Positions 27,400 to 42,932 of a stretch of DNA of 64,000 nucleotides are shown here, piece by piece. This DNA is from Chryseobacterium gleum. GTDB lineage: Bacteria; Bacteroidota; Bacteroidia; Flavobacteriales; Weeksellaceae. Made by a program: the position numbers and the translations under genes. The notes under the pieces are model-generated. The model had not been told where the DNA came from and made no database searches. It saw only the letters and a list, made by a program, of their open reading frames with translations. Each line of letters opens with the position of its first letter. Position 1 is the stretch's first letter. Where the stretch lies: positions 3,365,001 through 3,429,000 of the forward strand of contig NZ_LR134289.1 in the NCBI RefSeq assembly GCF_900636535.1, given 5' to 3'.

Positions 27400-27428
27400 T
27401 CCTGTTTCTGTCAGATTTATAATTGAGG

Positions 27429-27458
27429 AGGCTGTCTGAATGGGCAGCCTTTCTATTT
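27429..27458 (+). terminator. Intrinsic terminator
   Basis: AGGCTG (27429-27434) and CAGCCT (27445-27450) form a stem followed by TTCTATTTT, 30 bases beyond the phospholipase stop. Confidence 0.6.
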
Positions 27459-27539
27459 TAAACACAAATAACACTAATGCTTTTAACAAATATTCACCAA
27501 TCTGTAAGTATGAATTGAATGCTCTTAAAGCATTGTAAA

Positions 27540-29327: not shown

Positions 29328-29404
29328 CTTTTAAAATAAGACGAAATTACAGGAATTGAGAAGGAAATATTTTAATTGAATTTTAAATAATTGTGAAGGA
29401 AGTT

Positions 29405-30220
29405 TCATTCTTCTAATTCTGCATTTTTTCCGGCATAATTTTCCAATATTCTTTCAGAAACATCTCTTAATGTCTTTTCATTCTCAGGATGTTTTCCAAA
29501 ACTCGTAAAGAATTCTACATGATTTTTACTTTTATTATACCACACTTTTCCTAAGGAATTTTTAACAGTCAATGTGTCTGGTCTTGTAATTTTTTTGAAA
29601 TACTTAAACATATATTCATTCATTGGAACAACCTCCACTTGAGAACCTAGAGAACTACTATCCGTTGCCATATATCTATCTTTATCCCAATACATATAGG
29701 CTTTATTAATTGCAGGAGGCTCCCAGCCAGAAATAATGCCAAAAGATTTAGAATTTTTGCCATTAGAGAAAACAACGCCTCCAGTAACAAGAAATAAAAT
29801 AAAGGTCATTTCTAAAATACCTAATCCATTTTTTCTAATCAAATCTGGTAATAAAACTGTTGGTGATACAGTAATAATTATCTGCTGAACTTTATCAGAT
29901 ATATCTTTGAAACTTAAACCAAAAATATTTGTTGCATCTTTTCCCTCCAGACTTATCTTATCACAAAAATTATTAAAATCAGTATACCCTATATATTTAC
30001 TTAGACAGTCTAACGCAATATCATCAATATTATAATCTTCATTTTCTTGGACTAGGCTGGTATAATATCTTGTATATGACCTCTCATCTCTTTTAAAACC
30101 ATATTGTTCTTCAAAAAGAGAACTTAAATAGCCAGAAACAGAATTTTTACTTCCCCTTGGAAGCTCACTTTTTGCTTTCTCGAAAACGGTTTTCATTAAA
30201 AATCTTTTCTTCTCATACAT
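29405..30220 (-). CDS. Membrane protein with HTH-like N-terminus, unknown function
   Basis: A 271-residue protein. Residues 12-90 (ELPRGSKNSVSGYLSSLFEE...YTRYY...LSKYIGYTDFNNF) resemble a helical domain seen at the start of many uncharacterised Bacteroidota proteins, reminiscent of winged-helix/HTH layouts. A hydrophobic helix spans about 133-151 (GILEMTFILFLVTGGVVF), followed by a soluble C-terminal half. It could be a membrane-tethered sensor or regulator; nothing proves this. The coding sequence is noticeably AT-rich. Upstream at 30278-30293 is the inverted repeat also found ahead of two neighbouring units, so it probably belongs to the same regulon. An ATG at 30196 is an alternative start. 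Confidence 0.65.
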   Translation of the reverse strand: MYEKKRFLMKTVFEKAKSELPRGSKNSVSGYLSSLFEEQYGFKRDERSYTRYYTSLVQENEDYNIDDIALDCLSKYIGYTDFNNFCDKISLEGKDATNIFGLSFKDISDKVQQIIITVSPTVLLPDLIRKNGLGILEMTFILFLVTGGVVFSNGKNSKSFGIISGWEPPAINKAYMYWDKDRYMATDSSSLGSQVEVVPMNEYMFKYFKKITRPDTLTVKNSLGKVWYNKSKNHVEFFTSFGKHPENEKTLRDVSERILENYAGKNAELEE

Positions 30221-30249
30221 AATTTTTCAGGTATTAATTATTTGCTGTC

Positions 30250-30293
30250 CAAATTAGACAAAAACAAGACGTTAAAATTGCGGTTTTCCGTAA
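30250..30293 (-). promoter_or_regulatory. Inverted-repeat operator and promoter, copy A
   Basis: On the minus strand TTACGG-AAAA-CCGCAA (30278-30293) matches, with one change, the palindrome at 33193 and 34004. A CTAATTTG (-7-like; TTTG at 30250-30253) starts its TTTG 40 bases from the operator's first base, versus 41 at the other two sites. It points at the gene 29405-30220. Confidence 0.6.
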
Positions 30294-30599
30294 AAATCAA
30301 ACACTTACAATATATCTAACTGTCCATCGCCTGTCTGAGTATTTGAGGTTATATACAAGATATTTGTAAAAGAAATCAGAACAAAAAATAACATTAAAAA
30401 ATCTAAAACCTGATTTCAAAAATCACCAGATAAAACGGAGGAAAACTCCGGATTGGGAAGCAGATGTTTCTCCTCCGTTTTTGAAGGTTCACTTCCCTAA
30501 AAAATTAAGAAGCGCTTCGAAATTTTAATTGTGTACAGCCTGAGATAAATACATCTCGGGAGGAAGAAAAACTATTTCAACTTCAAAAATTTTAAGGAA
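30294..30599 (+). other. Structured non-coding leader or small RNA candidate
   Basis: No gene is visible. Perfect 11-base arms AAAACGGAGGA (30432-30442) and TCCTCCGTTTT (30471-30481) enclose a 28-base loop that holds an alternative partner (ACTCC) for GGAGG. Further on are a palindrome GAAGCGCTTC near 30509-30518 and a second hairpin CCTGAGAT / ATCTCGGG (30539-30560), before the ATG at 30600. This could be a regulated leader or a separate RNA. I found no convincing -7 box. Confidence 0.45.
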
Positions 30600-30800
30600 A
30601 TGATCGAGATTATATTGATGCTATTAGGTTTAGCATTCTCAAACAATAATGCCAATACAACAACTGCAAATGATAATAACCCAACTACTGTAACAACTCA
30701 AACTCAAGGTGGGGCTACGGATCCTGGAGGATCTACAGGGGAAAGTGGGGGAAGCGATACGGGAGGAGACACAGGTCCTGTTCTGCCACCTAAAAAATAG
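30600..30800 (+). CDS. Small low-complexity Thr/Asn/Gly-rich peptide
   Basis: A 66-residue peptide. A hydrophobic start (MIEIILMLLGLAFS) is followed by an NNNANTTTANDNN stretch, a Gly/Ser/Thr/Asp-rich segment and a VLPPKK end. It lacks positive charges before the hydrophobic part, so a classical signal peptide is uncertain; it may be membrane-associated or exported. AAGGAA precedes the ATG at a plausible ribosome-binding distance, and a terminator follows at once, which supports a real gene. It lies between a structured leader and a sensor kinase gene. No family is recognised. Confidence 0.6.
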   Translation: MIEIILMLLGLAFSNNNANTTTANDNNPTTVTTQTQGGATDPGGSTGESGGSDTGGDTGPVLPPKK

Positions 30801-30806
30801 AAAATC

Positions 30807-30840
30807 AAACCGTTCTACATTAGAGCGGTTTTTTTTATTT
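30807..30840 (+). terminator. Intrinsic terminator
   Basis: AACCGTTC and GAGCGGTT (one G-T pair) are followed by an eight-T run (30829-30836), directly behind the small peptide gene and 8 bases before the sensor kinase ATG. Confidence 0.85.
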
Positions 30841-30847
30841 TAGTAAA

Positions 30848-32485
30848 ATGATACGATATCTATTACTTATTCTGATGTTTTTTGTTGCTTGTGAAAAGAA
30901 ACAAGCAATTCATAATGTTTCTCAGGCAGATAAATTGTATGATGAAGGTGCCAATCTTCTCCTTAAAGATAATGTTGAAGCCTATAAAAAGTTTCAAAAA
31001 GCCCTACATTATTATTATAAAGTAAGAGATTCATCTAACATTTCTAAAAGCTTGATATGTCAGGCTATAGCTCAAAAATATACAGGAGATATATTTGGTG
31101 CTGAAACCACATTAGTAGATGCTCTCACCTTTATGAAAGAAGGGGACGAAAGTCTTTATTCTGCATATAGTACACTTGGAGATATAAAATATGCACAAAA
31201 AGAATACACATCTGCTGAAGAATGGTATAGTAAAGGCCTTTCCGAAAAAAATATTTCTCAAAAGGACAGATTTGACATGCTTAATAACAAAGGTGCTTCT
31301 GAATATAGGCAAAAGAAATATTCTTCAGCATTGAGAACATTACAAAGTATAGATCTAAAAAATGTAAAGGATATTAATCTAAAAAACAGGATTCAAGAAA
31401 ATATTGTATATACTCAATGGTTACAAAATAAAAACTATCCCGCTCAATCAGAGTTTGAAAAACTATTAAAGCTTAAATTAAAAAATGAAGATAATTGGGG
31501 GGCAAATTCAAGCTATTCTCATTTAGCAGAGATAAATCAGGATAGTAATCCTACCAAGTCTTTATACTATGCACAACAAATGCTTAATATCGCTAACAAA
31601 ATAAAAAGTCCTGATGATAGACTTGAAGCGATAGAAAAGATATCATTAGTTGACAATCCTTCTAATGCAATTAAAAACTTCAAACTCTACAAAAACTTAT
31701 CTGACAGTATTCAAAACTATAAAAATGATAATAGAAATCGATTTGCTTATATAAAATATGATAGCGAAAAGAAAGAAATAGAAAATCAAAGATTAAAGGC
31801 TGACAACTCACAAAAAAAACTTAATATTTTGTTATTATTAATGGCCTTAATCTTAGCTCTTATTGTTATTGTATGGTTTCGTAAGCGCCAGATAAGATTA
31901 AAACAAGAAAAAGAAATCGAGGTAAAAAACACGCAACTCAAAATGTCGAAGAAAGTTCATGATGTGGTTGCCAATGGAATCTACCAGGTGATGACAAAGA
32001 TTGAAAACCAGGAAGACTTCGACCGGGATAAAGCGCTTGACGAACTGGAATTTGTATATGAAAAATCCAGGGATATTTCCTATGATAAAATTGGGGAAGA
32101 AAAAGAGTTCAGCAAAGTCGTCTCAGAGCTTATTGCTTCTTTTAATAATGATACCGTAAAAACCTTTACCGCTGGAAACAGCCCTGCGATCTGGGAGTCC
32201 GTTTCTCCTACAGTAAAAGAGGAAGTTTACCAAATGGTCCGTGAGCTGATGGTGAATATGAAAAAGCACAGCCGGGCCAGTCATGTTGCGGTTAAATTTG
32301 AAAAAATAAACAATGTCGTTGAAATTCAGTACAAAGACAATGGAATAGGAATTCCGGGAGACCTTGTGTATAAAAATGGCTTACGAAATACGGCATCCCG
32401 CATTGAAGCGATTAAAGGAACCATTACTTTTGACACGAAAATTGAAAAAGGGCTGAAGGTCAATCTTTCATTCCCTGTTTCCTAA
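30848..32485 (+). CDS. TPR-containing sensor histidine kinase
   Basis: A 545-residue protein. The signal ends FVAC (Cys15), a possible lipoprotein site. Residues 25-290 form TPR-like helical repeats, a transmembrane helix spans 327-344, and a short coiled coil follows. The kinase region has a candidate phospho-acceptor His371 (KKVHDVVANGIYQ), the N box RELMVNMKKHSRAS and the G1 box DNGIGIP. This is the HisKA_3/LytS-like type common with LuxR-type regulators. A response regulator follows 10 bases later. The TPR part is far more AT-rich than the kinase part, suggesting a mosaic origin. The signal sensed is unknown. Confidence 0.88.
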   Translation: MIRYLLLILMFFVACEKKQAIHNVSQADKLYDEGANLLLKDNVEAYKKFQKALHYYYKVRDSSNISKSLICQAIAQKYTGDIFGAETTLVDALTFMKEGDESLYSAYSTLGDIKYAQKEYTSAEEWYSKGLSEKNISQKDRFDMLNNKGASEYRQKKYSSALRTLQSIDLKNVKDINLKNRIQENIVYTQWLQNKNYPAQSEFEKLLKLKLKNEDNWGANSSYSHLAEINQDSNPTKSLYYAQQMLNIANKIKSPDDRLEAIEKISLVDNPSNAIKNFKLYKNLSDSIQNYKNDNRNRFAYIKYDSEKKEIENQRLKADNSQKKLNILLLLMALILALIVIVWFRKRQIRLKQEKEIEVKNTQLKMSKKVHDVVANGIYQVMTKIENQEDFDRDKALDELEFVYEKSRDISYDKIGEEKEFSKVVSELIASFNNDTVKTFTAGNSPAIWESVSPTVKEEVYQMVRELMVNMKKHSRASHVAVKFEKINNVVEIQYKDNGIGIPGDLVYKNGLRNTASRIEAIKGTITFDTKIEKGLKVNLSFPVS

Positions 32486-32495
32486 CCATCCAGCC

Positions 32496-33158
32496 ATGTT
32501 CAAAAAAGTTTTAATCGTTGAAGATCAGGAAGTCATGAACCGGGGAGTCCTGAATACAATAAAAGAATTAAATATCCCTGATTTTGATTATGTAACCTAT
32601 TGTGATGAAGCCTTAAGCAGAATCAGAACAGCTTTGGAAAGGAAAAACCCATATGATCTGCTTATTGCTGATCTTTCATTTGAAAAAGACCATATTCCCC
32701 AGAAACTTCGTTCCGGACAGGAACTTATTCTTGAAGCAAAAAAAGTTCAGCCGGCTTTAAAAGTAGTGGTATTTTCTGTTGAAAAGAAAGCAAAAACAAT
32801 TGACGACCTTTACAAAATCTATCAGATTGACGGGTTTGTAAGCAAGGCAAGGCGTGACGGACAAGATCTGAAAAGCACAATACGGAAAATCTTTAACGGA
32901 GAAACCGTAATTCCCCAGGAAATTCTGAATACAATGCGTCATATTTCTTCTGAGTTTGATGCGTATGATATCAAATTGCTTGAGCTGTTAGCTAAAGGCT
33001 ATAAGCAAAGTGAAATAAGCACTTCTCTGAAACAACAAAGAATGATGCCATATGGCATCAGGTCTATCGAAAGGAGACTGAACGAACTCAGAGACAGTCT
33101 CGGCGCAAAAAATAATATTGAGATGATCGTAATCTGCAAAGATATTGGCCTCATCTGA
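32496..33158 (+). CDS. LuxR-type response regulator, copy 1
   Basis: A 220-residue two-domain regulator. The receiver has acidic Glu9-Asp10, the phosphorylatable Asp59 (LLIADLSF), Ser94 and Lys117 (FVSKARR). The C-terminal part (YDIKLLELLAKGYKQSEIS...RSIERRLNELRDSLGAKNNIEM) reads as a LuxR/GerE-like helix-turn-helix, with several extra residues between the helices. It is co-transcribed with the sensor kinase (10-base gap) and is most likely its partner. Confidence 0.88.
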   Translation: MFKKVLIVEDQEVMNRGVLNTIKELNIPDFDYVTYCDEALSRIRTALERKNPYDLLIADLSFEKDHIPQKLRSGQELILEAKKVQPALKVVVFSVEKKAKTIDDLYKIYQIDGFVSKARRDGQDLKSTIRKIFNGETVIPQEILNTMRHISSEFDAYDIKLLELLAKGYKQSEISTSLKQQRMMPYGIRSIERRLNELRDSLGAKNNIEMIVICKDIGLI

Positions 33159-33192
33159 TCAGGCTTGCTGAAATATCATTTTTTCGTCCCTT

Positions 33193-33237
33193 TTACGTGA
33201 AACCGTAATGACGAAAAATTAAATGAATATACTTTTG
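33193..33237 (+). promoter_or_regulatory. Inverted-repeat operator and promoter, copy B
   Basis: TTACGT-GAAA-CCGTAA (33193-33208) is followed after 21 bases by TACTTTTG (33230-33237), a TAnnTTTG -7 box. The distance from operator start to -7 start is 37 bases, identical to copy C. The operator lies where a -33 element would be. It serves the second response regulator gene, suggesting autoregulation or cross-regulation. Confidence 0.72.
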
Positions 33238-33273
33238 AGGACTTAAACATTTTTTTAATTAAACCGTATAACC

Positions 33274-33939
33274 ATGTTCAAAAAAATTTTAATTGCCGAA
33301 GATCATGAAAGCATCAATATTTCTGTTCAGAAAACCCTTGAAGAGCTGAATATTCCCACCGTAGATTATGTGTATTACTGTGATGATGCTATTGGAAAAA
33401 TTCAGAAAGCGTTACGGGAAGAATATCCTTATGACCTGTTGATTACAGATCTGTATTATGAAGAAGATCATCATGAACAAAACCTTAAAGACGGAAAAGA
33501 ACTCATCAGAAAAGCAAAAGAGATACAGCCTGATTTGAAAATCATTGTATTTTCGGCAGAACATAAAACGGGTGTAATAGAAAATCTTTTTTCAGATTAT
33601 GAAATCAACGGATATATCCGTAAAGCCAGAAACGATTCAAAAGAACTGAAAAAGGCCATTGCATCTGTATATATCGGCGAAAACTATTTATCTTTTGATC
33701 TGAAGCAGGATATGAAAAAGTTCAACAGCTATGAGTTTTCTACATTTGATATCACCCTTGTCTCTCTCCTTTCTAAGGGAATCTTGCAAAAAAACATTCC
33801 TGCCCACCTCGAAGAAAGAAATATTAAACCCTCCAGCCTGAGCAGCGTTGAGAAGAGATTAAACAGTCTGAAGGAAGACCTTGAAATAAACAGCAATGAG
33901 CAGCTGGTAGCCTTCTGCAAGGACATCGGGATTATATAG
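33274..33939 (+). CDS. LuxR-type response regulator, copy 2
   Basis: A 221-residue paralogue of the preceding regulator, with the same spacing of Glu9-Asp10, Asp59 (LLITDLYY), Ser94 and Lys117 (YIRKARN). The C-terminal HTH-like region is more divergent (FDITLVSLLSKGILQKNIP...SSVEKRLNSLKEDLEINSNEQ). It has its own promoter with the shared operator and its own terminator, so it can be controlled separately from the kinase. Both regulators may be served by one kinase; this is inference. Confidence 0.88.
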   Translation: MFKKILIAEDHESINISVQKTLEELNIPTVDYVYYCDDAIGKIQKALREEYPYDLLITDLYYEEDHHEQNLKDGKELIRKAKEIQPDLKIIVFSAEHKTGVIENLFSDYEINGYIRKARNDSKELKKAIASVYIGENYLSFDLKQDMKKFNSYEFSTFDITLVSLLSKGILQKNIPAHLEERNIKPSSLSSVEKRLNSLKEDLEINSNEQLVAFCKDIGII

Positions 33940-33962
33940 TATATAATTCATCTTACATACAG

Positions 33963-33990
33963 CCTTTCAAATTTTTTGAAAGGTTTTTTA
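33963..33990 (+). terminator. Intrinsic terminator
   Basis: CCTTTCAAA (33963-33971) and TTTGAAAGG (33975-33983) form a perfect stem with a 3-base loop and run into TTTTTT. Confidence 0.92.
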
Positions 33991-34003
33991 TTTTTTGCCC
34001 GTT

Positions 34004-34048
34004 TTACGGAAACCCGTAACGAACCAAAATTTAATGCTCATATTTTTG
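34004..34048 (+). promoter_or_regulatory. Inverted-repeat operator and promoter, copy C
   Basis: A perfect palindrome TTACGG-AAAC-CCGTAA (34004-34019) precedes TATTTTTG (34041-34048) by 21 bases. Spacing equals copy B. No TTG is present at -33, so an activator bound here could substitute for it. This is the predicted promoter of the ten-gene operon that follows. Confidence 0.75.
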
Positions 34049-34076
34049 GACTGTTAAACCAATAAAAATTTTTGCA

Positions 34077-34247
34077 ATGGAAAAAAAACCATTAGGAACA
34101 AAAGCGAAGACAGGAGAAAATTGTCCTGAATCTGGAGTTTGGAAAGTCGTTGGAAATCCTTCTACAACCGCTCCAATTTCAAAAGGAAATAGAATGCCTC
34201 CTTATGATGGTAAAGCTGTTACTTGGGAATTAATTCAGTACGCTTAA
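34077..34247 (+). CDS. 56-residue protein heading the operon
   Basis: A short gene: MEKKPLGTKAKTGENC, then PESGVWKVVG, then APISKGNRMPPYDG and KAVTWELIQYA. The pattern TG-x2-CPxSGxW ... KG-x2-MPP-x2-G-x2-VxW-x-L looks like a compact conserved module that I have the impression of seeing attached to other bacterial proteins, but I cannot name a family. It has a single cysteine, no signal peptide and no membrane segment. It is the first gene after operator copy C, with a leader of about 25 bases. Confidence 0.65.
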   Translation: MEKKPLGTKAKTGENCPESGVWKVVGNPSTTAPISKGNRMPPYDGKAVTWELIQYA

Positions 34248-34259
34248 CAAATCATTATT

Positions 34260-34292
34260 TCCAGTGATTATTAACAAAAAATGATCACTGGA
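34260..34292 (+). promoter_or_regulatory. Intercistronic hairpin
   Basis: TCCAGTGATTATT (34260-34272) pairs with AATGATCACTGGA (34280-34292) with one mismatch. No T-run follows, so it is more likely an mRNA-processing or stabilising hairpin than a terminator. It sits between the 56-residue gene and the rest of the operon. Confidence 0.5.
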
Positions 34293-34314
34293 TTATCTAA
34301 TAAACAAAATAATC

Positions 34315-34653
34315 ATGGGAAAATTCGTAATCACACAAAGAATCAACAAAGAGTATCAGTTTAATCTGAAAGCCGGAAACGGTGAAATTATTTTAACCAG
34401 TGAAGGGTATGTTCAGAAAGCATCATGCCAGAAAGGTATTGAATCTGTAAAAGTCAATTCTCAGGATCTTTCAAGGTATGACAGAAGACTTGCAAAAAAT
34501 GGAAAAGACTATTTCGTTCTAAAAGCAAGAAACGGTGAAATTATAGGGAACAGCCAGATGTATAGTACAAAATCCGGAATGGAAAATGGTATTGCTTCTG
34601 TAAAATCAAATGCCCCGACAGCTGAAATCATTGACGAAACTTTAAAAAACTAA
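34315..34653 (+). CDS. YegP-family protein with two DUF1508 repeats
   Basis: A 112-residue protein made of two tandem ~45-residue repeats: FNLKAGNGEIILTSEGY...KGIESVK and FVLKARNGEIIGNSQMY...NGIASVK. The F-x-LKA-NGEII-S-x-Y-x(5-6)-GI-SVK pattern is the DUF1508/YegP signature. Proteins of this family are small, soluble and of unknown molecular role, often reported in stress or defence settings. It ends 5 bases before the nuclease-like gene. Confidence 0.9.
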   Translation: MGKFVITQRINKEYQFNLKAGNGEIILTSEGYVQKASCQKGIESVKVNSQDLSRYDRRLAKNGKDYFVLKARNGEIIGNSQMYSTKSGMENGIASVKSNAPTAEIIDETLKN

Positions 34654-34658
34654 ACACT

Positions 34659-35729
34659 ATGGATCTCAAAATTAAACTGGAGCAATTGCAGCAGAAAGTT
34701 ATGGGGCTTAAAGACCAGATCGGAACTGAAGAAGCCACAAAAAATGCATTCGTGATGCCTTTTATACAAATCCTGGGATATGATATTTTTAATCCCACAG
34801 AAGTGGTTCCCGAGCACGTTTGTGATATCGGAACAAAAAAAGGAGAAAAGGTAGATTATGTGATCAAAAATAATGATGAACCTATCTTCATTATCGAGTG
34901 CAAACACTGGAAGGAAAGTGCAGATGCCCATAATTCACAGCTTCACAGGTATTATCATGTTTCGAAAACGAGATTCGGAGTTTTGACCAATGGAATTGTG
35001 TACAACTTTTATACAGATCTGGAAAAGCCCAATATTATGGACGAAAAACCGTTTTTCACCATCAATATTGAAGATTTAAAAGACAGTTCCATCAAAATTC
35101 TGGAAAGTTTCACCAAAAAAAATTATAACCTGGAAAGTATACTTGATTCTGCAGAAGCATTAAAGTATATCAAAGCCATCAGAAAGGAATTCGAAAAGGA
35201 AATTGAAAATCCATCTGATGAATTGGTAAAACTTCTGGTGAACCTCTTCTTTGAGAAACCTTTAACAGCCAACAGAATGATTTCTTTTAAAGAGTATGCT
35301 AAAAAAGCATTAACTACTTCTATTAATGAATCAATTAGTTTCCGGTTAAAGTCCGCATTGAGTATTAATGAACAGATAGAGAAAAAAGAAGATGATGTAA
35401 AATCATCACAATCTATTGATCAAAATAATGACTCTAAAATTATCACCACAGAAGAAGAGCTGGAAGGGTTTCAGATTGTAAAAGCCATTTTGAGAGAGAA
35501 AATTCCTTCTTCAAGAATTGCCTATCGGGATACTTTATCCTATTTCGGGATTTTATTAGATGACAATAACAGAAAACCACTTTGCAGATTACACTTCAAT
35601 ACAACAAATAAATACCTGGAAACTTTCCACAACGGAAAAGAAGCAGGAGAAAAGATTTTATTGAATACCCTTGATGAAATTTATAATTACAGAAATCAGC
35701 TTCATCTGACGCTGGAAAACTATGGATAA
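34659..35729 (+). CDS. Type I restriction R-like nuclease-domain protein (HsdR_N)
   Basis: A 356-residue protein. The N-terminal half has the PD-(D/E)xK core of HsdR N-terminal domains: NAFVMPFIQILGYDIFNPTEV, Asp66 (EKVDYVI), Glu80-x-Lys82 (IIECKHW) and Gln94 (QLHRYY). There is no helicase domain, so it is not a complete restriction subunit. A linker (about 250-280) and a separate C-terminal domain (EGFQIVKAILRE...CRLHFN...LDEIYNYR) follow. No methylase or specificity subunit is nearby. It could cleave or bind nucleic acid as an effector; that is inference from the intact catalytic residues. Confidence 0.85.
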   Translation: MDLKIKLEQLQQKVMGLKDQIGTEEATKNAFVMPFIQILGYDIFNPTEVVPEHVCDIGTKKGEKVDYVIKNNDEPIFIIECKHWKESADAHNSQLHRYYHVSKTRFGVLTNGIVYNFYTDLEKPNIMDEKPFFTINIEDLKDSSIKILESFTKKNYNLESILDSAEALKYIKAIRKEFEKEIENPSDELVKLLVNLFFEKPLTANRMISFKEYAKKALTTSINESISFRLKSALSINEQIEKKEDDVKSSQSIDQNNDSKIITTEEELEGFQIVKAILREKIPSSRIAYRDTLSYFGILLDDNNRKPLCRLHFNTTNKYLETFHNGKEAGEKILLNTLDEIYNYRNQLHLTLENYG

Positions 35730-35741
35730 AAATTAATAGCC

Positions 35742-36251
35742 ATGAAAAAACTAATTCCATTCATATTACTGATCTTCACTTTATTTCCATTAATTTCTTG
35801 TTTTAAAGCCAATGACAATGTAGGATACGGTGGGAGATGTACCGGTTCCGCCAATTGTACGGCCTGTTCAAATTGCTCAGGCTGCGGACACTGCAGCAGC
35901 GGAGGAGTCTGTGGAGTCTGCCGTGGTGGATATTCCGAGAGGAGCTCTTCAAAAAGCAAGTCTAAAAAAGATAAATCTTCGGATTCCTACAAATCTTCAA
36001 AGCCCCACACTGGTAAACCTCCAAAAGTATTTATTGATAAGGTAAACATCAATCTTAACTCTAACAACAGATACATTGCAGGCATTTCAACAACAAATGT
36101 TTATGAAAAACCGACTTTTAAATCTAAAGTAATAACAACAGTTCCTAAAGATACCAAACTAACACAGCTCTCAAAGGAAGGATCATGGTATAAAGTACAG
36201 GTTAAATCAAGTAGAAAAATAGGATATGTTTTCAATAAAGATGTCAAATAA
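35742..36251 (+). CDS. Cys-rich lipoprotein with SH3-like domain
   Basis: A 169-residue protein. The signal peptide ends PLISC (Cys20, lipoprotein). Residues about 33-62 contain eight cysteines in a Gly/Ser-rich setting (RCTGSANCTACSNCSGCGHC, then CGVC), likely disulfide-linked or metal-binding. A Ser/Lys-rich linker follows, then a bacterial SH3b-type domain from about residue 105 (STTNVYEKPTFKSKVITTVP...GSWYKVQVKS..KIGYVFNKDV), a fold that often binds peptidoglycan. It sits between the nuclease-like and PH-domain genes in the operon. Confidence 0.85.
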   Translation: MKKLIPFILLIFTLFPLISCFKANDNVGYGGRCTGSANCTACSNCSGCGHCSSGGVCGVCRGGYSERSSSKSKSKKDKSSDSYKSSKPHTGKPPKVFIDKVNINLNSNNRYIAGISTTNVYEKPTFKSKVITTVPKDTKLTQLSKEGSWYKVQVKSSRKIGYVFNKDVK

Positions 36252-36268
36252 TCAAAAAACAAAATAAC

Positions 36269-36895
36269 ATGAACTTAAAAAAATTTTTAAATGAAGAACA
36301 GGATCCTCAAGCTGTTGAAAAGCTGTTAGGAAGAATCAACAGTTTACTTACCTCACAAGAATTTGTAGAATATATAGCTGTTCAGAAGAAACCTGTGATC
36401 AATTTATCTCCTGATTGTATTGCTCTAACCAACAGAAGAATTATTTTCTGCAGGCCGAAAACCTTTGGGTTATCCATGGATTTTCAGGATTATAACTGGG
36501 TAGACATCGCTGATTGTCATATCAAAGAAGGAATTGTTGGCTCTACTTTTACAATGAGAACAACAAAAAATTATACTAATATGATGGATTATCTGCCTAA
36601 AAATCAAGCCAGAAAGCTATATCAGTTTGCACAGGAAGTAGAAGAAAGAATGCGCGGTGTAAGAAGAGAAAAAAATCTTGAAACTTTGAGGGCTTCCGCA
36701 GGAGGGGTTACTGTAAACAATGCGACCCCTATCATCACGCAACCTCAACCATTTCAGGAAGAAAAAAAGCCACTGCTAATAGAAAATGAAGATCCTTTTG
36801 CCTTATTGCAGAAGCTGAAAGACTTAAAAGAGAACGGAATAATCTCTCCCGAAGAATTTGAAATAAAAAAGAACGAAATTTTATCAAGAGTTTAA
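36269..36895 (+). CDS. Bacterial PH-domain protein with SHOCT tail
   Basis: A 208-residue protein. The N-terminal ~130 residues fit a bacterial pleckstrin-like domain (VEYIAVQKKPVINLSPDCIALTNRRIIF...DYNWVDIADCHIKEG). A linker leads to a C-terminal SHOCT motif at about 178-208 (FALLQKLKDLKENGIISPEEFE). PH-SHOCT proteins are usually cytosolic or membrane-proximal and help oligomerise. No signal peptide is seen. It ends 3 bases before the TM2 gene, indicating tight coupling. Confidence 0.88.
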   Translation: MNLKKFLNEEQDPQAVEKLLGRINSLLTSQEFVEYIAVQKKPVINLSPDCIALTNRRIIFCRPKTFGLSMDFQDYNWVDIADCHIKEGIVGSTFTMRTTKNYTNMMDYLPKNQARKLYQFAQEVEERMRGVRREKNLETLRASAGGVTVNNATPIITQPQPFQEEKKPLLIENEDPFALLQKLKDLKENGIISPEEFEIKKNEILSRV

Positions 36896-36898
36896 ATT

Positions 36899-37114
36899 AT
36901 GAAATCAAAATCTACCGCCGCATTACTTGCTTTTTTCCTGGGAGGATTAGGCATTCACAGATTCTACTTAGGTCAGAATGGTGTGGGAATACTTTATCTT
37001 GTATTTTGCTGGACATTCATTCCCGCATTAGTTGCATTTTTTGATTTCTTCGTACTTATTTTTATGTCTGAAAACCGTTTTAATTGTAAATATAATTTTA
37101 ACACAGGATTTTAA
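36899..37114 (+). CDS. TM2-domain protein
   Basis: A 71-residue membrane protein that is essentially one TM2 domain: a helix (AALLAFFLGGLGIHRFYLGQ), a turn with the conserved GxHRFYLGQ signature, and a second helix (GILYLVFCWTFIPALVAFFDFFVLIF). TM2 proteins form a hairpin in the inner membrane; their functions in bacteria are mostly unknown. Confidence 0.92.
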   Translation: MKSKSTAALLAFFLGGLGIHRFYLGQNGVGILYLVFCWTFIPALVAFFDFFVLIFMSENRFNCKYNFNTGF

Positions 37115-37122
37115 ACAGCATC

Positions 37123-37530
37123 ATGAAACCATTTCTCACCATCTGTGCGTTATGTTGTTTTGCTGGTATTTTCAAACTTCCTATAGAATATTATACTTTT
37201 CTTAGAATTATTATTTCCATTGGAGCTTTATTGGTTTTATACAATACGCTGAGCTCTAGACAACATTATTTCAGTATACTATTTCTAATCATTCTCATTC
37301 TTTTCAATCCCGTTTTCCCAATTTATCTGTATCGGAAAAACATTTGGATCCCAATTGATATTATAACGGGAATTTTATTTCTGCTGATCAATTTCATAGA
37401 AAGAAAAGAACAAAAAAAAGAAGAAGAGGAAGAAATTATCGAAGAAACCTCAGAGCACTTACCTGCCATACACCAAAGAACTGTTTCCAGAGACAGAATT
37501 ATTAATCCTAAAACAACAAAACAAGAGTAA
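37123..37530 (+). CDS. Small multi-pass membrane protein (DUF6804-like)
   Basis: A 135-residue protein with about four hydrophobic helices in its first 90 residues (FLTICALCCFAGIF, FLRIIISIGALLVLYNTL, FSILFLIILILFNPVFPIYL, IDIITGILFLLINFI). A strongly acidic coiled stretch (KKEEEEEIIEETSE) and a basic tail follow. The ILFNPVFPIYLYRKNIWIPID block is reminiscent of DUF6804; I hold that family name loosely. It lies in the tight operon, 8 bases after the TM2 gene. Confidence 0.7.
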   Translation: MKPFLTICALCCFAGIFKLPIEYYTFLRIIISIGALLVLYNTLSSRQHYFSILFLIILILFNPVFPIYLYRKNIWIPIDIITGILFLLINFIERKEQKKEEEEEIIEETSEHLPAIHQRTVSRDRIINPKTTKQE

Positions 37531-37535
37531 CCATC

Positions 37536-37943
37536 ATGGAAAACAATCAAATAACAGAAAGCCTCAAAGCTCATTTTCTAAGACTCTATCAAATGGCAAT
37601 ATGTGATGACGATTTCAGTGCTTTAGAATTAAAAATGCTCTACAAATGTGCAGAAGAAAGAGGAATTTCATCAAAAAATTTAGATGAGATCCTTTTAAAT
37701 CCGATCAATTTAAAGTCATTGGTACCCCAAACGATCGAAGAAAAAGTAGATTATTTATATGATCTCACTGTCATGATCTGGGCTGATGGAATCATTTCTC
37801 CGAATGAATACTCTGCCATGCAAAAGTATGTTCTGATGTTTGGTTTTCTGGAAGAAAATACAACAGCTATTGTAGATTACCTCATTGAAGCTATAAAAAT
37901 CGGCAAGAACAAAAGCGAAATTTTATATGAATTAAAAAACTAA
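37536..37943 (+). CDS. TerB-like helical protein
   Basis: A 135-residue soluble all-helical protein. Two acidic repeats, CDDDFSALELKML and WADGIISPNEYSAM, follow the D-x2-[FI]-S-x2-E layout of TerB-like domains, which bind metal in tellurite-resistance TerB. In Ter systems TerB links membrane and soluble partners; here it sits next to membrane proteins and a vWA-like lipoprotein, a comparable set. The TerB label is based on pattern rather than alignment. Confidence 0.72.
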   Translation: MENNQITESLKAHFLRLYQMAICDDDFSALELKMLYKCAEERGISSKNLDEILLNPINLKSLVPQTIEEKVDYLYDLTVMIWADGIISPNEYSAMQKYVLMFGFLEENTTAIVDYLIEAIKIGKNKSEILYELKN

Positions 37944-37948
37944 TCATC

Positions 37949-39289
37949 ATGGATACCACCAGTATAAAAAATTTATTTAAACTAAAATCCGTTCCGATAG
38001 AACCACAACAGGAACAGCTTGCTAAAAGTGATGTCATTCCGGGTGATGAATCTTTCGAAGAAACCCGAAAAAGGACCTACCACGAATCGGGCTACAGAGA
38101 TAGCTCGCGAACCAACGGAAATCACTCGACCCTATCTATATGTTTGGATGCCGTTTATTCAAAATTTCAGAATGAAGAAAAAGAAATGGTTGAAAAACAG
38201 AAGAATCTTAAAGAATCTTATGTAAACGAACAGAAAAACCGGGAAACTGAAATCAAAGCTTTATTCGTTTCACAGGAGACCAAAGAAGAACAATTACAAA
38301 GCAAGAGCATAGAAATTGAGAATCATCAGCATACCATTGAAACATTAAAAGCTGAGATCCTTGATCTTCCCAGAAACCCGGAAAAATATAATATAAAAGC
38401 GACAAGAGGAGCTTCAGCAAAATTCTGGATCGGACTTTTTCTTTTGATTCCCATCACCTTATATTTAGGAACTTTCTATATCTCAACTTCTTACTCGGCT
38501 TTTTTCAAAAGTTTTGATGCAAAAAGTACAATTATCCAAAGTGTTTTAGATGCACAGGCTTTCAGCAAAGCATGGAACGAAGGAGTTATTGAAGGAGCAT
38601 TTGTCACCTTGATTCCCTTTGTATTCCTAGGATTGGGTTACTTAATTCACATGTTCTGGGAGAATAAAACGAGAGCCAACTATATCAAGCTTGGTTTATT
38701 ATTTATCGTGACATTTATTTTCGACTGCATTTTAGCCTACGAAATTGAGTCAAAATTGTATGAATTAAACAAAACTTTTGAATCTCCACCCTTTGATATT
38801 AAAATTGCTTTTACCAAAATTCAGTTTTGGGGAATAATTTTCGCGGGATTTATTGTATACATTATCTGGGGGTTGGTTTTTGACTTTGTAATGAAAGAAC
38901 ACCGTGAAAAAGATAAGATTAAAAATGAACAGGAAATCAGGCAAAAGAGAATTGAATTCTTTCAGGATAAAGTCAATATTTTAAAAAAAGAAATAGAAGA
39001 AATCCTTTCCAACATTGGAATGATAAAAGAAACTGTTATTAAAACCCGGGGCAGAATCGAAGAGCTTCAGAATATTATTGACGGCGTAATTATTCCCACC
39101 AAGGATTACAAACTATATGCCTCGGAATACGTGCAGGGCTGGATCACTTTTATCGGTGAAAAAATAGCAGTGTCAAGAACGGAAAAACAAACAATGATTG
39201 AAGACTGCATTGCCACCTATAATACCAGCTTGGAAACTGTAGGCGCTAATTCCGACAACCAAAATTTAGTGTATTTATCATCTTTATAA
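37949..39289 (+). CDS. Four-helix coiled-coil membrane protein, unknown
   Basis: A 446-residue protein. A coiled-coil region at about 72-137 (rich in Glu/Lys/Gln) is followed by four transmembrane helices near 160-180, 216-236, 247-265 and 293-313, and a second long coiled coil at 315-375 leading to a C-terminal soluble part. Both ends are probably cytosolic. I recognise no family. The architecture suits a scaffold or a membrane-remodelling or channel component. The short stretch near residues 42-62 (HESGYRDSSRTNGNHS) looks unlike the rest and could reflect a compensated frameshift. Confidence 0.75.
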   Translation: MDTTSIKNLFKLKSVPIEPQQEQLAKSDVIPGDESFEETRKRTYHESGYRDSSRTNGNHSTLSICLDAVYSKFQNEEKEMVEKQKNLKESYVNEQKNRETEIKALFVSQETKEEQLQSKSIEIENHQHTIETLKAEILDLPRNPEKYNIKATRGASAKFWIGLFLLIPITLYLGTFYISTSYSAFFKSFDAKSTIIQSVLDAQAFSKAWNEGVIEGAFVTLIPFVFLGLGYLIHMFWENKTRANYIKLGLLFIVTFIFDCILAYEIESKLYELNKTFESPPFDIKIAFTKIQFWGIIFAGFIVYIIWGLVFDFVMKEHREKDKIKNEQEIRQKRIEFFQDKVNILKKEIEEILSNIGMIKETVIKTRGRIEELQNIIDGVIIPTKDYKLYASEYVQGWITFIGEKIAVSRTEKQTMIEDCIATYNTSLETVGANSDNQNLVYLSSL

Positions 39290-39299
39290 CGCGCAGATT

Positions 39300-40199
39300 A
39301 TGAAAAAAATATTTTATTTATTATTGTTCATTTCTTTGGCTTCTTGCTGTAAAAACAAAGACGATGGAACAAACACTGGAAAGAAAGATTCTGCTGTGGC
39401 TGACCCAAACAATATCAATGTCAGTATTTTGATTGATTTATCCGATAGAATTGATCCTAATACAAACCCAAATTCTACAATGGAATATTATCAACGGGAC
39501 ACAGAGTATATCAAAGCCATTGAAAAAGGATTTTTAAATCATATTAAATCAAAAAGAATCATCACCTATGACGATCAGATGCAGGTTTTCTTCAATCCGG
39601 AACCTTCAGATCCGAAAATGAATGACCTTACCAAAGAATTAAAAGTTTCTTTCAATAAAGATACTCCAAGAAATTATTTTGATTCTGTTGATAAAAAATA
39701 TTCTGAGTTACCTTTAAAAATTTATAATTCAGCAATTAAAGATGGAAAATATGTCGGGTCCGACATCTGGGAATTCTTTAAAAACAAAGTCAAAGATTAC
39801 TGTATAAAAGATGATCGCAGAAACATCCTTTTCATTTTAACCGACGGGTATATGTATCATCAAAACACGAAGTTTGAAGAAAAAAATGAAAATTCATACA
39901 GAACCTCCTATTTAACAACGAAACTTATAAAAGCCAATAACCTGACAACATCCAGTTTTAAAGATACCATTGAAAAAAATGGCTATGGTTTTGTAAAAGC
40001 AAATGAAAATCTGAGTAACCTTGAGGTTATCGTTTTAGGAATTAACCCGGAAAAAGGAAACCCATTCGAAGAAGCTGTTATTAAAGAATACTGGGAAAAC
40101 TGGTTCATAGAGATGAAAATTAAAAATTATCAGATTAAATCCACAGATCTGCCTTCCAACCTGGAGCCCATTATCTTAAAATCGATTTCAGGGAAATAA
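39300..40199 (+). CDS. vWA-like lipoprotein
   Basis: A 299-residue protein. The signal peptide ends ISLASC (Cys16), predicting a lipoprotein, followed by a charged linker. The body resembles a von Willebrand A fold: ILIDLSDRIDP at about 43-53 (a partial MIDAS, D-x-S), a central region, then NILFILTDGYMYH with the second acidic position. A vWA protein next to a TerB-like one recalls TerY/TerB pairs, though here the vWA part is extracytoplasmic. It is the last gene of the operon; a bidirectional terminator follows. Confidence 0.72.
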   Translation: MKKIFYLLLFISLASCCKNKDDGTNTGKKDSAVADPNNINVSILIDLSDRIDPNTNPNSTMEYYQRDTEYIKAIEKGFLNHIKSKRIITYDDQMQVFFNPEPSDPKMNDLTKELKVSFNKDTPRNYFDSVDKKYSELPLKIYNSAIKDGKYVGSDIWEFFKNKVKDYCIKDDRRNILFILTDGYMYHQNTKFEEKNENSYRTSYLTTKLIKANNLTTSSFKDTIEKNGYGFVKANENLSNLEVIVLGINPEKGNPFEEAVIKEYWENWFIEMKIKNYQIKSTDLPSNLEPIILKSISGK

Positions 40200-40227
40200 A
40201 AAAACACACTCAATATATTAATTATTC

Positions 40228-40260
40228 AAAAAAAGCGAAGAAATGTATTCTTCGCTTTTT
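40228..40260. terminator. Bidirectional terminator
   Basis: GCGAAGAA (40235-40242) and TTCTTCGC (40248-40255) form a perfect stem flanked by A-runs on the left and T-runs on the right, between two convergent genes. Confidence 0.92.
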
Positions 40261-40262
40261 CT

Positions 40263-40712
40263 CTATTTTCTTATCATTTCCGTATGCGGAATATCATCTT
40301 CCAGATATTTCTTTCCGGTGTCTTCAAACCCGAATCCGCTGTAAAATTTTAACAGATAATCCTGTGCTGAAATTCTGATTTCAGAAGTATGGAAACGGTT
40401 TTCTATAGTTTCTACAGCATATTGTATCAGTTGTTTTCCAAGACTTTTTCCTCTTGCCAGCTCTGTGGTAAGAACTCTGCCAATAGAAGTTTCATCGTAC
40501 TTTATACCTTTATCAAAAATACGGCAGTAGGCTAAAACCTGCCCGCCTTCTTCTGCCCAGATATGGACTGCTTTCTGGTCATAATTATCCAGATCAGGAT
40601 AAGGGCAGTTCTGTTCAATAACAAAAACATCAATACGTGCTTTCAGTACGGCATACAGCTCCGGAACAGTAAACTCATCAAATGTTTTGATTTTCCAGAC
40701 AATATTACTCAT
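40263..40712 (-). CDS. ElaA-like GNAT N-acetyltransferase
   Basis: A 149-residue protein. RIDVFVIEQNCPYPDLDNYD, HIWAEEGGQVLAYCRIF and IGRVLTTELARGKSLGKQL (acetyl-CoA binding Q/R-x2-G-x-G/A region) are typical of the ElaA branch of GNAT enzymes; the end FYSGFGFEDTGKKYLEDDIPH is equally typical. The substrate is unknown. The ATG at 40712 overlaps the upstream GTPase gene by 8 bases, so the two are translationally coupled. A longer frame begins at a TTG at 40715. Confidence 0.88.
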   Translation of the reverse strand: MSNIVWKIKTFDEFTVPELYAVLKARIDVFVIEQNCPYPDLDNYDQKAVHIWAEEGGQVLAYCRIFDKGIKYDETSIGRVLTTELARGKSLGKQLIQYAVETIENRFHTSEIRISAQDYLLKFYSGFGFEDTGKKYLEDDIPHTEMIRK

Positions 40713-41328
40713 CAAAGCTTATATTATTATGGGTTAAAAACTCATTGGTTTTTTGAATAAAATCAAGAATCTTATCTCCTCCTTCTTTCTTTTCTGCTGA
40801 GGTAATATACAACTCAGGGAGATCTTCCCACGTTTTGTGAAGCTCTGCCTTATAATCCTCAACATTTTTGATTACGGCATTCGGTTTCAGCTTATCAGCT
40901 TTTGTAAACACAATTGAGAATGGTATTCCGCTTTCTCCACACCATTGGATGAATTCCAGATCAATTTTCTGTGGAGTATGTCTCACATCTACCAAGACAA
41001 AAAGATTGACCAGATTCCTTCTGTTCAGAATATAATTGGTGATCAGTTTTTCAAAATCCTTTCGCTGTACTTTTGAAACCTTTGCATATCCATATCCGGG
41101 TAAATCGGTAAGATACCAGTTTTCATTCACTAAAAAATGATTGATCAGCTGGGTTTTTCCGGGTGTCTGTGATGTTTTGGCAAGATCTTTATGATTCATC
41201 ATCGCATTGATGAGTGATGACTTTCCTACATTAGACCTTCCGATAAAAGCATACTCGGGAATATTAGGTTCAGGACATTCCTGCCATTTTCCGCTACTCT
41301 TTACAAACTCTGCTGTCTTGATAATCAT
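40705..41328 (-). CDS. yihA: Ribosome biogenesis GTPase YihA/YsxC (EngB)
   Basis: A 207-residue GTPase. GRSNVGKSSLINAM is the P-loop (G1), followed by TPGKTQ (G2), DLPGYG (G3), TKAD (G4) and ITSAEKKEG (G5). It assists late assembly of the large ribosomal subunit. I choose the ATG at 41328, because the family normally starts around M-I-K-x-AEFVKSS; an ATG at 41358 would add ten residues. Confidence 0.95.
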   Translation of the reverse strand: MIIKTAEFVKSSGKWQECPEPNIPEYAFIGRSNVGKSSLINAMMNHKDLAKTSQTPGKTQLINHFLVNENWYLTDLPGYGYAKVSKVQRKDFEKLITNYILNRRNLVNLFVLVDVRHTPQKIDLEFIQWCGESGIPFSIVFTKADKLKPNAVIKNVEDYKAELHKTWEDLPELYITSAEKKEGGDKILDFIQKTNEFLTHNNISFDE

Positions 41329-41390
41329 TTTTGAATGTATTTTAGAAAAATAAACCATTAAGAAAAGCTCTTAATGGTCATTTATATGTT

Positions 41391-42152: not shown

Positions 42153-42376
42153 AAAACGCCTTAATAAAGCCCTGCAAAAATACAAATTAAACCTCAAAAA
42201 AATTTTGATTATCCTAATTTAAGATAAAAATAATATAATATTCTCCTTTTTAACTTTTTTTTTCAAAACCGCTTTATTATGGCGTAAATAACACTTTCAA
42301 CAAGTCTCTTCATATCAGTATTTTACATTATTGAAATTCAATCTTTAATAAAACTTATTAACATTGAGTCAAAAAG
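42153..42376. other. Divergent spacer upstream of the dcw cluster
   Basis: AT-rich non-coding sequence between the hydrolase gene and the dcw promoter. I see no gene and no clear repeat. Confidence 0.6.
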
Positions 42377-42418
42377 TGGGAAAAAGTGGGAAATTTTGGA
42401 AATTATTATATAAATTTG
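42377..42418 (+). promoter_or_regulatory. MraZ operator and dcw promoter
   Basis: TGGGA-N5-TGGGA-N5-TGGAA (42377-42401) is the repeated 10-base-periodic box recognised by MraZ in other bacteria. TAAATTTG (42411-42418) is a TAnnTTTG -7 box ending only 6 bases before the mraZ ATG. The operator covers the -33 region, consistent with autorepression. The short distance implies a nearly leaderless mraZ mRNA. Confidence 0.82.
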
Positions 42419-42424
42419 TCCCAA

Positions 42425-42883: not shown

Positions 42884-42932
42884 CTGCAGTAGATTATTAA
42901 TTGATAGTATTAAATAAAAAACACAATTAAGC

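What the first reader, a model, noticed from the sequence alone, without database searches (positions are those of the whole stretch)
29405..40199. Candidate undescribed Ter-like stress/defence island with its own two-component control
Seen: a low-GC membrane protein, a tiny peptide, a TPR kinase, two twin regulators, then ten tightly spaced genes (gaps of 3-17 bases after the second gene). These encode a 56-residue protein, YegP/DUF1508, a PD-(D/E)xK nuclease-like protein, a Cys-rich SH3 lipoprotein, PH-SHOCT, TM2, a small membrane protein, a TerB-like protein, a coiled-coil membrane protein and a vWA-like lipoprotein. Known: TerB, vWA (TerY-type) and nuclease modules recur in Ter stress systems. 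Inferred: the set spans cytosol, inner membrane and envelope with a nuclease as possible effector, so it may sense envelope or phage attack.
Basis: partly seen in the sequence, partly recalled or inferred. Interest (0 to 1): 0.82.

Follow-up and report, generated by a model that had tools for sequence, protein, structure and literature searches.

The report
Peptide-linked kinase switching bacterial immunity genes
The cluster is one optional cargo beside a fast-changing sensor system whose probable DNA switch also sits in front of many unrelated anti-virus defence systems in Chryseobacterium and its relatives, which suggests these bacteria control much of their immunity as one regulon.

Summary
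The two-component part is not the island's own: membrane protein A, a 66-aa peptide gene B, a TPR kinase and a regulator occur nearly genus-wide (kinase in 85 of 88 genomes), at eight loci without cargo. The ten-gene block is optional (strong g9 in 34 of 88). A palindrome, TTACGG-N4-CCGTAA, often with a Bacteroidota -7 box 21 bp on, stands before A, the second regulator and the cargo. It occurs 423 times in 88 genomes (reversed control 12) and is absent from the two near-complete genomes lacking the kinase. Elsewhere it lies between genes, near CBASS, Gabija, Qat, Shango, IetAS, restriction-modification, VgrG and, in Pedobacter, Cas9. The kinase sensor is hypervariable and tends to swap with B's C-terminal tail; half of the orphan B copies found carry tails of other genomes. 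Best reading: a peptide-linked two-component system running a defence regulon, with g8-g10 (TerB-like, membrane coil, vWA-like) as one member; a fused g9-g10 lies in a type III-B CRISPR locus. Operator binding, peptide-receptor binding and anti-phage activity are inferred; linkage may explain part of the tail-sensor link. Membership of the Ter systems is not supported.

The parts
29405..30220 (-). A: 271-aa protein, helical N-terminal domain, one membrane segment (read by eye), alpha/beta C-terminal domain
   Evidence: no Pfam family; alignment of 34; AF2, pLDDT 73; no fold match
30278..30293 (.). operator copy next to A (TTGCGGTTTTCCGTAA), 58 bp from the A start; no exact -7 box 21 bp on
30430..30560 (+). 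conserved structured leader upstream of B (stem, pseudoknot-like GGGAAG/CTTCCC, second stem)
   Evidence: 12 pairs with two-sided changes, 0 of 500 shuffles as high; the six pseudoknot pairs never vary
30600..30800 (+). B: 66-aa putative secreted peptide precursor with polymorphic C-terminal tail
   Evidence: found in 79 of 85 genus loci
30808..30836 (+). terminator-like hairpin plus T-run between B and the kinase
   Evidence: read by eye
30848..32485 (+). sensor histidine kinase: lipobox-like start and TM at about 326-345 (read by eye), TPR sensor, kinase domain
32496..33158 (+). R1: response regulator, VraR-like
33193..33208 (.). operator copy before R2 (TTACGTGAAACCGTAA); -7 box TACTTTTG at 33230-33237
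33274..33939 (+). R2: second response regulator
34004..34019 (.). operator copy before the cargo (TTACGGAAACCCGTAA); -7 box TATTTTTG at 34041-34048
34077..34247 (+). g1: 56-aa accessory protein
34315..34653 (+). g2: DUF1508 x2 (YegP-like), accessory
34659..35729 (+). g3: HsdR-N type PD-(D/E)xK protein, accessory
35742..36251 (+). g4: Cys-rich SH3 lipoprotein, accessory
36269..36895 (+). g5: bacterial PH + SHOCT, accessory
36899..37114 (+). g6: TM2 protein, accessory
37123..37530 (+). g7: DUF6804 membrane protein
37536..37943 (+). g8: TerB-like protein (below Pfam cut-off)
37949..39289 (+). g9: coiled-coil multi-TM membrane protein (TM and coil read by eye); core of the cargo
39300..40199 (+). 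g10: lipoprotein with vWA-like fold; core of the cargo

Best explanation
The locus is the control centre of a conflict (anti-phage defence plus type VI) regulon. A periplasmic TPR sensor kinase, whose signal is most likely the C-terminal tail of the small peptide B encoded just upstream, phosphorylates a VraR-like response regulator. The regulator activates promoters made of TTACGG-N4-CCGTAA, about 21 bp, TAnnTTTG: parts of its own locus, the local cargo, and scattered defence systems. The ten-gene block is exchangeable local cargo; its conserved core is g9-g10 (coiled-coil membrane protein plus vWA-like lipoprotein) with an exchangeable partner (TerB-like or PLD-like), probably an envelope-acting defence module. 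Shown by sequence: operator, promoter geometry, neighbouring target genes, optional cargo, hypervariable sensor, tail-sensor association, orphan tails. Inferred: regulator-operator binding, activation rather than repression, peptide export and receptor binding, anti-phage activity of g8-g10.
For: Operator: 423 exact sites in 88 genus genomes against 12 for the reversed pattern; with the -7 box, 62 of 296 order genomes have it and 0 of 296 the reversed control. The -7 box is found exactly 21 bp on 78 times among 103 HK-locus sites and 20-22 bp on 24 times among 56 other sites, with 1 and 5 hits at all other offsets up to about 72 bp. Of 57 sites outside the HK locus 2 are intragenic; of 89 sites in 80 named loci, 2. 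Targets: CBASS III in the window's own genome; GajB 4e-267, CBASS effector and cyclase, QatA, IetS, PDC-M23B, PDC-M30A, methyltransferase; Shango SngA/SngB and SngC, Cas9 with Cas1, IetS, type I MTase; VgrG. PADLOC models matched at 1e-10: 216 for 91 downstream genes, 56 for 91 control genes. Link to the TCS: a site within 320 bp after a regulator in 73 of 83 other genus loci, next to A in 39 of 81; the two near-complete genomes without the kinase are the two without a site; 24 of 80 named operator loci also hold HK and RR relatives, 16 of them outside Chryseobacterium. Peptide: B in 79 of 85 loci; tail-sensor Mantel r 0.56, partial 0.57, tail-kinase 0.13, n = 78; in four identical-tail pairs sensors are 87-95% alike on kinases 46-68% alike; 9 of 18 orphan B-type ORFs end in nine residues identical to a kinase-linked B of another genome. 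Cargo core: g10 profile matches in 20 of 22 g9 loci, the other two ending before it; a fused homologue inside a type III-B CRISPR locus.
Against: No binding, expression or phage data. The non-coding spacer between B and kinase tracks the sensor as strongly as the tail does (0.58 vs 0.56; tail given spacer 0.43), so swapping of one linked block explains part of the association, and some identical-tail pairs have sensors only 39-49% alike. G039, without a kinase hit (87% complete, 410 contigs), has 7 sites. 9 of 84 other genus loci show no site near the kinase by the relaxed pattern. 30 of 55 non-intragenic outside sites have no exact TAnnTTTG at 18-24 bp, among them those near VgrG, Gabija, Qat and the CBASS of L203; Qat and that CBASS were assigned by eye, the fixed rule chose the other side. 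Many downstream genes have no defence label. PADLOC counts are overlapping models, not proteins. B's export is judged only from its hydrophobic N-terminus.
Confidence: 0.7

Rival explanations
1. The regulon is real and belongs to this two-component system, but B is not the signal: it is an output such as a secreted or toxin-like small protein, or an accessory of the sensor, while the TPR domain reads envelope damage or a phage-derived cue. B tail and sensor swap together only because they are neighbours.
For: Spacer DNA correlates with the sensor as well as the tail does; small proteins also lie next to operators elsewhere; weak bacteriocin-like Pfam hit of B, YxzE 0.0014, below cut-off.
Against: The tail stays associated with the sensor when the spacer is controlled for (0.43, permutation 0.001); correlation is lower at HK residues 20-49, next to B, than at 140-169; 9 of 18 orphan B-type ORFs carry tails of other genomes while the rest of the sequence differs.
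Confidence: 0.3
2. The palindrome is the site of another, unrelated global regulator that also happens to control this locus; the two-component system responds to something else.
For: No direct binding data; sites occur far from the locus; G039 has sites without a kinase hit.
Against: A site follows a regulator within 320 bp in 73 of 83 other genus loci, cargo-free ones included; sites and kinase are missing together in G029 and G031; HK and RR relatives lie beside the element in 24 of 80 named loci.
Confidence: 0.14
3. One reading: a self-contained Ter-like stress/defence island with a nuclease effector and private control.
For: TerB-like, vWA-like and PD-(D/E)xK proteins in one operon.
Against: Control module near-universal and cargo-independent; nuclease not tied to g9; no TerC/TerD; TerB below cut-off; 10 of 22 g9 loci show no TerB match.
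Confidence: 0.05
4. The cargo is an envelope-maintenance set (SH3, PH, TM2, vWA-like lipoprotein) under a general stress regulator, not a defence system.
For: Domains are mostly envelope-related; no PADLOC family above weak scores.
Against: Rare and patchy (14 of 395 class genomes); the same operator stands near CBASS, Gabija, Shango, R-M and Cas9 genes; PLD-type partners and a CRISPR III-B context of g9-g10.
Confidence: 0.2

Closest known systems
agr-type peptide two-component quorum sensing (recalled)
   Same: small peptide gene, membrane protein, hypervariable sensor part of a kinase, less variable kinase part, sensor-ligand module swapping
   Different: no family, PDB or fold relative of an AgrB-type processing protease found for A; sensor is a TPR domain placed outside the membrane by sequence reading; Gram-negative Bacteroidota; output is defence genes
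RRNPP receptors (recalled)
   Same: TPR domain as candidate reader of a short linear peptide
   Different: RRNPP receptors are cytosolic; here the TPR domain precedes a TM segment and a histidine kinase
Quorum-sensing or Rsm control of CRISPR-Cas (PMC8861277, PMC8450108; seen as search listings with abstract starts only)
   Same: a signalling or global regulatory system acting on immunity
   Different: those are general regulators acting on CRISPR and T6SS; here one operator stands near many unrelated systems
Ter stress systems with TerB and TerY-type vWA (recalled)
   Same: TerB-like and vWA-like proteins together
   Different: no TerC/TerD, TerB below cut-off, vWA-like protein is a lipoprotein, fixed membrane partner g9
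Shango (SngABC) and DISARM DrmC
   Same: Shango lies beside the same operator in this genus; L205's PLD partner of g9-g10 matches DrmC (5.5e-10)
   Different: the ten window cargo proteins match no SngB/SngC or DrmA/B model at E up to 1

Membership tests
Ter-dependent stress system | TerB-family protein above curated cut-off | tested here: not met
   g8 15.8 bits vs 24.4; relative in L242 22.9 vs 24.4
Ter-dependent stress system | TerC and TerD/E/F family proteins in the neighbourhood | tested here: not met
   none among the ten cargo genes or seven neighbours
Ter-dependent stress system | vWA (TerY-like) protein | tested here: inconclusive
   no Pfam hit; weak vWA-type fold matches mixed with flavodoxin-like folds; pdb_via not available
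Two-component system | histidine kinase ATPase domain plus receiver domain regulator | tested here: met
   HATPase_c 2.3e-07; Response_reg 3.4e-09 for R2 and 1.4e-06 for R1, the latter just under the curated cut-off; VraR match of R1 1.2e-04
Peptide quorum sensing (agr-like logic) | hypervariable ligand and sensor with a more conserved kinase part | tested here: met
   sensor 0.38 vs kinase part 0.64 median identity, engB 0.89; tail-sensor association, with linkage caveat
Peptide quorum sensing (agr-like logic) | peptide is exported and binds the sensor | not testable with these tools
   hydrophobic N-terminus only
agr system proper | AgrB-type processing peptidase | tested here: not met
   A has no Pfam family and no PDB sequence or fold match; other genes of the genome were not searched
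RRNPP | cytosolic TPR receptor | tested here: not met
   lipobox-like start and TM segment at about 326-345, read from the sequence, place the TPR part outside; no topology program was run
Known anti-phage system (PADLOC) | cargo proteins match a described system | tested here: not met
   only weak hits: PDC-S48 0.00022, Cas4 0.0043, DrmC 0.0044

The most novel reading that the evidence does not exclude
Bacteroidota carry a dedicated immune regulon: a species- and strain-specific peptide code (hypervariable B tail read by a co-swapping periplasmic TPR kinase) switches on, through one operator-promoter element, whatever defence and T6SS genes have been acquired behind it, so that immunity is deployed by kin or density signalling; orphan tail arrays would then be eavesdropping, jamming or remnants of past pherotypes.
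Probability: 0.42. Interest if true: 0.95.

Novelty: new variant of a known kind. Interest (0 to 1): 0.85.

Why it matters
Defence systems are usually studied one by one, with local regulators (recalled). A single operator beside CBASS, Gabija, Qat, Shango, IetAS, restriction systems, Cas9 and VgrG would mean that horizontally acquired immunity is plugged into one host circuit. It makes three open questions directly testable: when defence is switched on, whether it is socially controlled in Bacteroidota, and which unannotated operons behind the operator are new defence systems (guilt by operator). The hypervariable peptide-kinase locus would be a peptide communication code in a phylum for which the ten paper searches made here listed none.

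Tried and rejected
Rejected: (1) mobile island with private control: the kinase is near-universal and 29 of 33 g9 loci keep engB at hand. (2) The conserved A-B intergenic stretch as a genomic repeat: single copy in the own genome. (3) Rfam family in 27000-43000: none at gathering thresholds. (4) The operator with N5 spacer and the TTGCGG-N4-CCGCAA variant in the own genome: both intragenic (L148; L234), taken as chance. (5) Simple distance decay as the whole cause of tail-sensor covariation: not supported, but linkage was NOT excluded. (6) g9 in the phage collection: no match. (7) Fold of A: none found. (8) PDB relatives of g9: only weak coiled-coil type hits, best E 0.031. (9) Papers: ten searches listed nothing on this locus, operator or peptide; the library lacks most subscription journals, and I saw listings and abstract starts only, no full paper.

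Rows dropped and choices: B was not found in 6 of 85 loci (L046, L112, L113, L115, L116, L117), and L123 (no A in its stretch) was dropped, leaving 78; the frameshifted L064 never entered. The sites were listed only as far as the third of six sites of G008, so the 57 outside sites come from the own genome and 16 others, G008 in part; L071's site was not among them. The 50 loci with no HK/RR relative had been chosen to lie outside the HK locus, so they show only that chance HK/RR neighbours are rare. Searches tested ten proteins each, chosen by eye (of 145 downstream genes). Several control hits are genes of operator-near operons that the fixed rule left out (L226, L203) or later genes of operons (L151, L198). 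After the recount (operator next to A in 39 of 81, not nearly all loci) I lowered the main confidence from 0.72 to 0.70 and the novel case from 0.45 to 0.42.
Full report
Observation. The window is C1:3365001-3429000 of an unnamed 5.6 Mb genome. Contigs of equal length in the named collection (G024:C15, 1297594 bases, and NZ_LMQN01000015.1, Chryseobacterium sp. Leaf405; G022:C3, 1214495 bases, and NZ_JAELVM010000002.1, Chryseobacterium endalhagicum) indicate that the genus is Chryseobacterium.

Distribution of the cargo. g9 has a match in 41 of 147 relatives: 34 strong ones in the genus (of 88), 4 in another family of the order and 3 distant ones in the genus; g10 is found in the same 38 genomes as strong g9. 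In all 33 other genus loci with strong g9, g7-g8-g9-g10 are collinear, while g1-g6 come and go, and 29 of 33 have engB within the fetched stretch. g3 is commoner (64 of 147). Across the class g9 is rare (14 of 395 genomes, 9 of 196 genera at E <= 1e-8). It is neither housekeeping nor without a conserved neighbourhood.

The control module is separate from the cargo. The kinase is found in 85 of 88 genus genomes at E <= 1e-30, twice in G060 and G068 and once in the rest, at 35-67% identity, although engB is found in 88 of 88 at 82-100%. Eight loci (L105, L108, L128, L129, L130, L134, L136, L138) have only 139-229 bases between regulator and the GNAT-engB flank, no room for cargo. Other genomes hold other genes at the same place, for example a 149/567/57/174/516-aa set whose last member is an AAA ATPase. 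Median pairwise identities: kinase sensor part 0.38 and kinase part 0.64 (85 loci), regulator 0.57 (84, R1 and R2 types mixed), engB 0.89 (66), mraW 0.93 (65).

The operator. Next to A and upstream of R2 and g1 lie three copies of one palindrome (30278, 33193, 34004), the only ones in the 64 kb by the relaxed pattern. In the other genus loci a copy lies within 320 bp after a regulator in 73 of 83 and 40-75 bp from the A start in 39 of 81; 75 of 84 have at least one near the kinase and 9 have none (L084, L093, L102, L103, L107, L113, L116, L117, L141). The exact form occurs 423 times in 88 genomes against 12 for the reversed pattern; the two genomes with none, G029 and G031, are also without kinase hit, while the third kinase-negative genome, G039 (87% complete), has 7. 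A TAnnTTTG box (the Bacteroidota -7 element, recalled) is found exactly 21 bp downstream 78 times among 103 HK-locus sites and at 20-22 bp 24 times among 56 others, with 1 and 5 hits at other offsets; the window's copies before R2 and g1 have it, the copy next to A does not exactly. A site just upstream of the box suggests activation (inference). With the box added, the element is found in 62 of 296 order genomes, all in two families, with no reversed control. In the named collection at least 119 stretches hold it; of the 80 listed, 78 are Bacteroidota by name and 2 belong to one MAG labelled Bifidobacterium; since the box itself is a Bacteroidota feature, this restriction is partly built in.

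The targets. I fetched contexts of sites outside the HK locus in the own genome and 16 others. Of 57 sites 2 are intragenic and 2 have no near gene; 25 of the 55 non-intragenic ones have an exact box at 18-24 bp. In the own genome: a type III CBASS operon with box (Cyclase 3.7e-110, HORMA 1.1e-96, TRIP13 4.1e-114, effector 3.1e-127, capP divergent); a VgrG/DUF4280 cassette behind a 59-aa frame, no exact box; two sites near unknown genes, one of them beside a B-like lipoprotein although its box points the other way; and one site in an ICE-like region with no gene assigned. Elsewhere, with the fixed rule: Gabija (GajB 4e-267), PDC-M30A, PDC-M23B with HamB-like matches, IetS, type II methyltransferase, DrmC-like PLD, GajA and Shango SngA/SngB, two members each, Vsr and DndB-like genes. 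By eye only, the rule having chosen the other side: a CBASS with SAVED-type endonuclease effector and cyclase (L203) and Qat (QatA 9.1e-108, L226). In named genomes, ten proteins chosen by eye: Cas9 and Cas1 in Pedobacter chinensis, SngC in Chryseobacterium shigense, IetS in Kaistella, type I methyltransferase in Mariniflexile, methyltransferase in Pedobacter, a partly ThsA-like protein in Chryseobacterium sp. FH1, PDC-S26 in Flavobacterium ginsenosidimutans, weaker HEC-06/Orf5 and PbeA matches in two more. The unselected comparison gave 216 PADLOC models matched by 91 downstream genes and 56 by 91 control genes; these are overlapping model counts, not proteins, and control hits include genes of operator-near operons. 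A recurrent unannotated triple (about 342/308/411 aa, weak DO-GTPase1 hit, below cut-off) follows the site in six loci. Many targets have no label.

Link of operator and two-component system. Beyond co-location and joint absence, 24 of the 80 named operator loci carry both kinase and regulator relatives at 1e-10, 16 of them outside Chryseobacterium; 50 genus loci around other sites, chosen to lie outside the HK locus, carry none, which shows only that chance neighbours are rare. R1 resembles VraR. Binding is not shown.

Peptide B. A gene of mostly 50-80 aa, typically starting M[IL]xxILMLLGLAF and ending in a Pro-rich polymorphic tail, precedes the kinase in 79 of 85 loci; in loci of the other family the same slot holds a small lipoprotein with a similar Pro-rich end (L066-L068, L100). 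Distances between tails follow distances between sensor domains (r 0.56; 0.57 after kinase and regulator are controlled for), hardly kinase domains (0.13), and the signal stops at the TM segment (n = 78). Identical-tail pairs include L036/L125 (sensor 0.87, kinase 0.68, mraW 0.92), L111/L137 (0.95, 0.49), L050/L052 (0.89, 0.46) and L054/L058 (0.92, 0.65), but also pairs sharing QLPPPFTNP with sensors of only 0.39-0.49; over 38 identical-tail pairs the median sensor identity is 0.72 against 0.38 for the other 3043 (kinase 0.70 against 0.65). Against: the non-coding spacer between B and kinase tracks the sensor equally well (0.58), leaving 0.43 for the tail once it is controlled for; a cassette swapped by recombination explains part of the pattern. 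Of 18 orphan B-type ORFs found, 9 (in L083, L093, L104, L111 and L137) carry tails identical over nine residues to a kinase-linked B of another genome. B has a conserved leader whose two stems covary (12 pairs with two-sided changes, 0 of 500 shuffles as high, slid controls 0-5; but the number of further pair types is not unusual, 163 of 500, helix 3 is paired in 82% of cells, and the pseudoknot helix never varies and so says nothing).

The cargo core. With profiles, all 22 g9 loci examined match g9, 20 also match g10 (L242 and L364 end before it; in L368 one frame lies between), and TerB is found in 12 of 22. Of the other ten, five have a PLD-like domain fused to g9 (L069-L071, L306, L366), L205 has it as a separate gene, and four show neither. 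In a Runella plasmid one protein combines both (g9 part 52-407, g10 part 476-706 of a 708-residue open frame) and lies between cmr4-6/csx2/WYL and a CRISPR primase-polymerase, cas2 and cas1. These contexts make a membrane-acting defence role the likeliest, but no test was made.

Verdict. I put 0.70 on the two-component system controlling a defence regulon through this operator, and 0.42 on the full peptide-code reading.

Noticed in passing
window 30430-30560: Strongly conserved leader upstream of B with two covarying stems and an invariant GGGAAG/CTTCCC pairing; possible cis-regulatory RNA, no Rfam match.
   Followed up: partly
L093 (G054): Array of about ten orphan B copies with different tails upstream of A and in the cargo region; the regulator after the kinase looks interrupted next to a transposase-like frame. 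Described only.
   Followed up: partly
L150:4520-6882: Small lipoprotein ending in a Pro-rich tail beside a TPR-AraC regulator, near an operator and a VgrG cassette; may be a second peptide-TPR pair.
   Followed up: no
L149:8845-9138: Small lipoprotein with Pro-rich tail and a 165-aa membrane protein beside an operator in the own genome; the exact -7 box points the other way.
   Followed up: no
L191, L194, L201, L215, L218, L250: Recurrent operator-linked triple of unknown proteins (about 342/308/411 aa, weak double-GTPase hit); candidate new defence system.
   Followed up: partly
L048, L109, L122, L126, L127, L140, L141: Alternative genes at the same site: 149/567/57/174/516-aa set, the last an AAA ATPase.
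   Followed up: partly
L354:6860-8974 (NZ_CP031032.1): Fused g9-g10 protein inside a type III-B CRISPR locus on a Runella plasmid; candidate membrane ancillary protein of CRISPR type III.
   Followed up: partly
L064 (G063): Many frameshifts across the locus, perhaps assembly quality (genome 75% complete).
   Followed up: no
L236, L266: Operator hits on contigs of a MAG labelled Bifidobacterium breve, one with kinase/regulator relatives; probably a contaminated bin.
   Followed up: no
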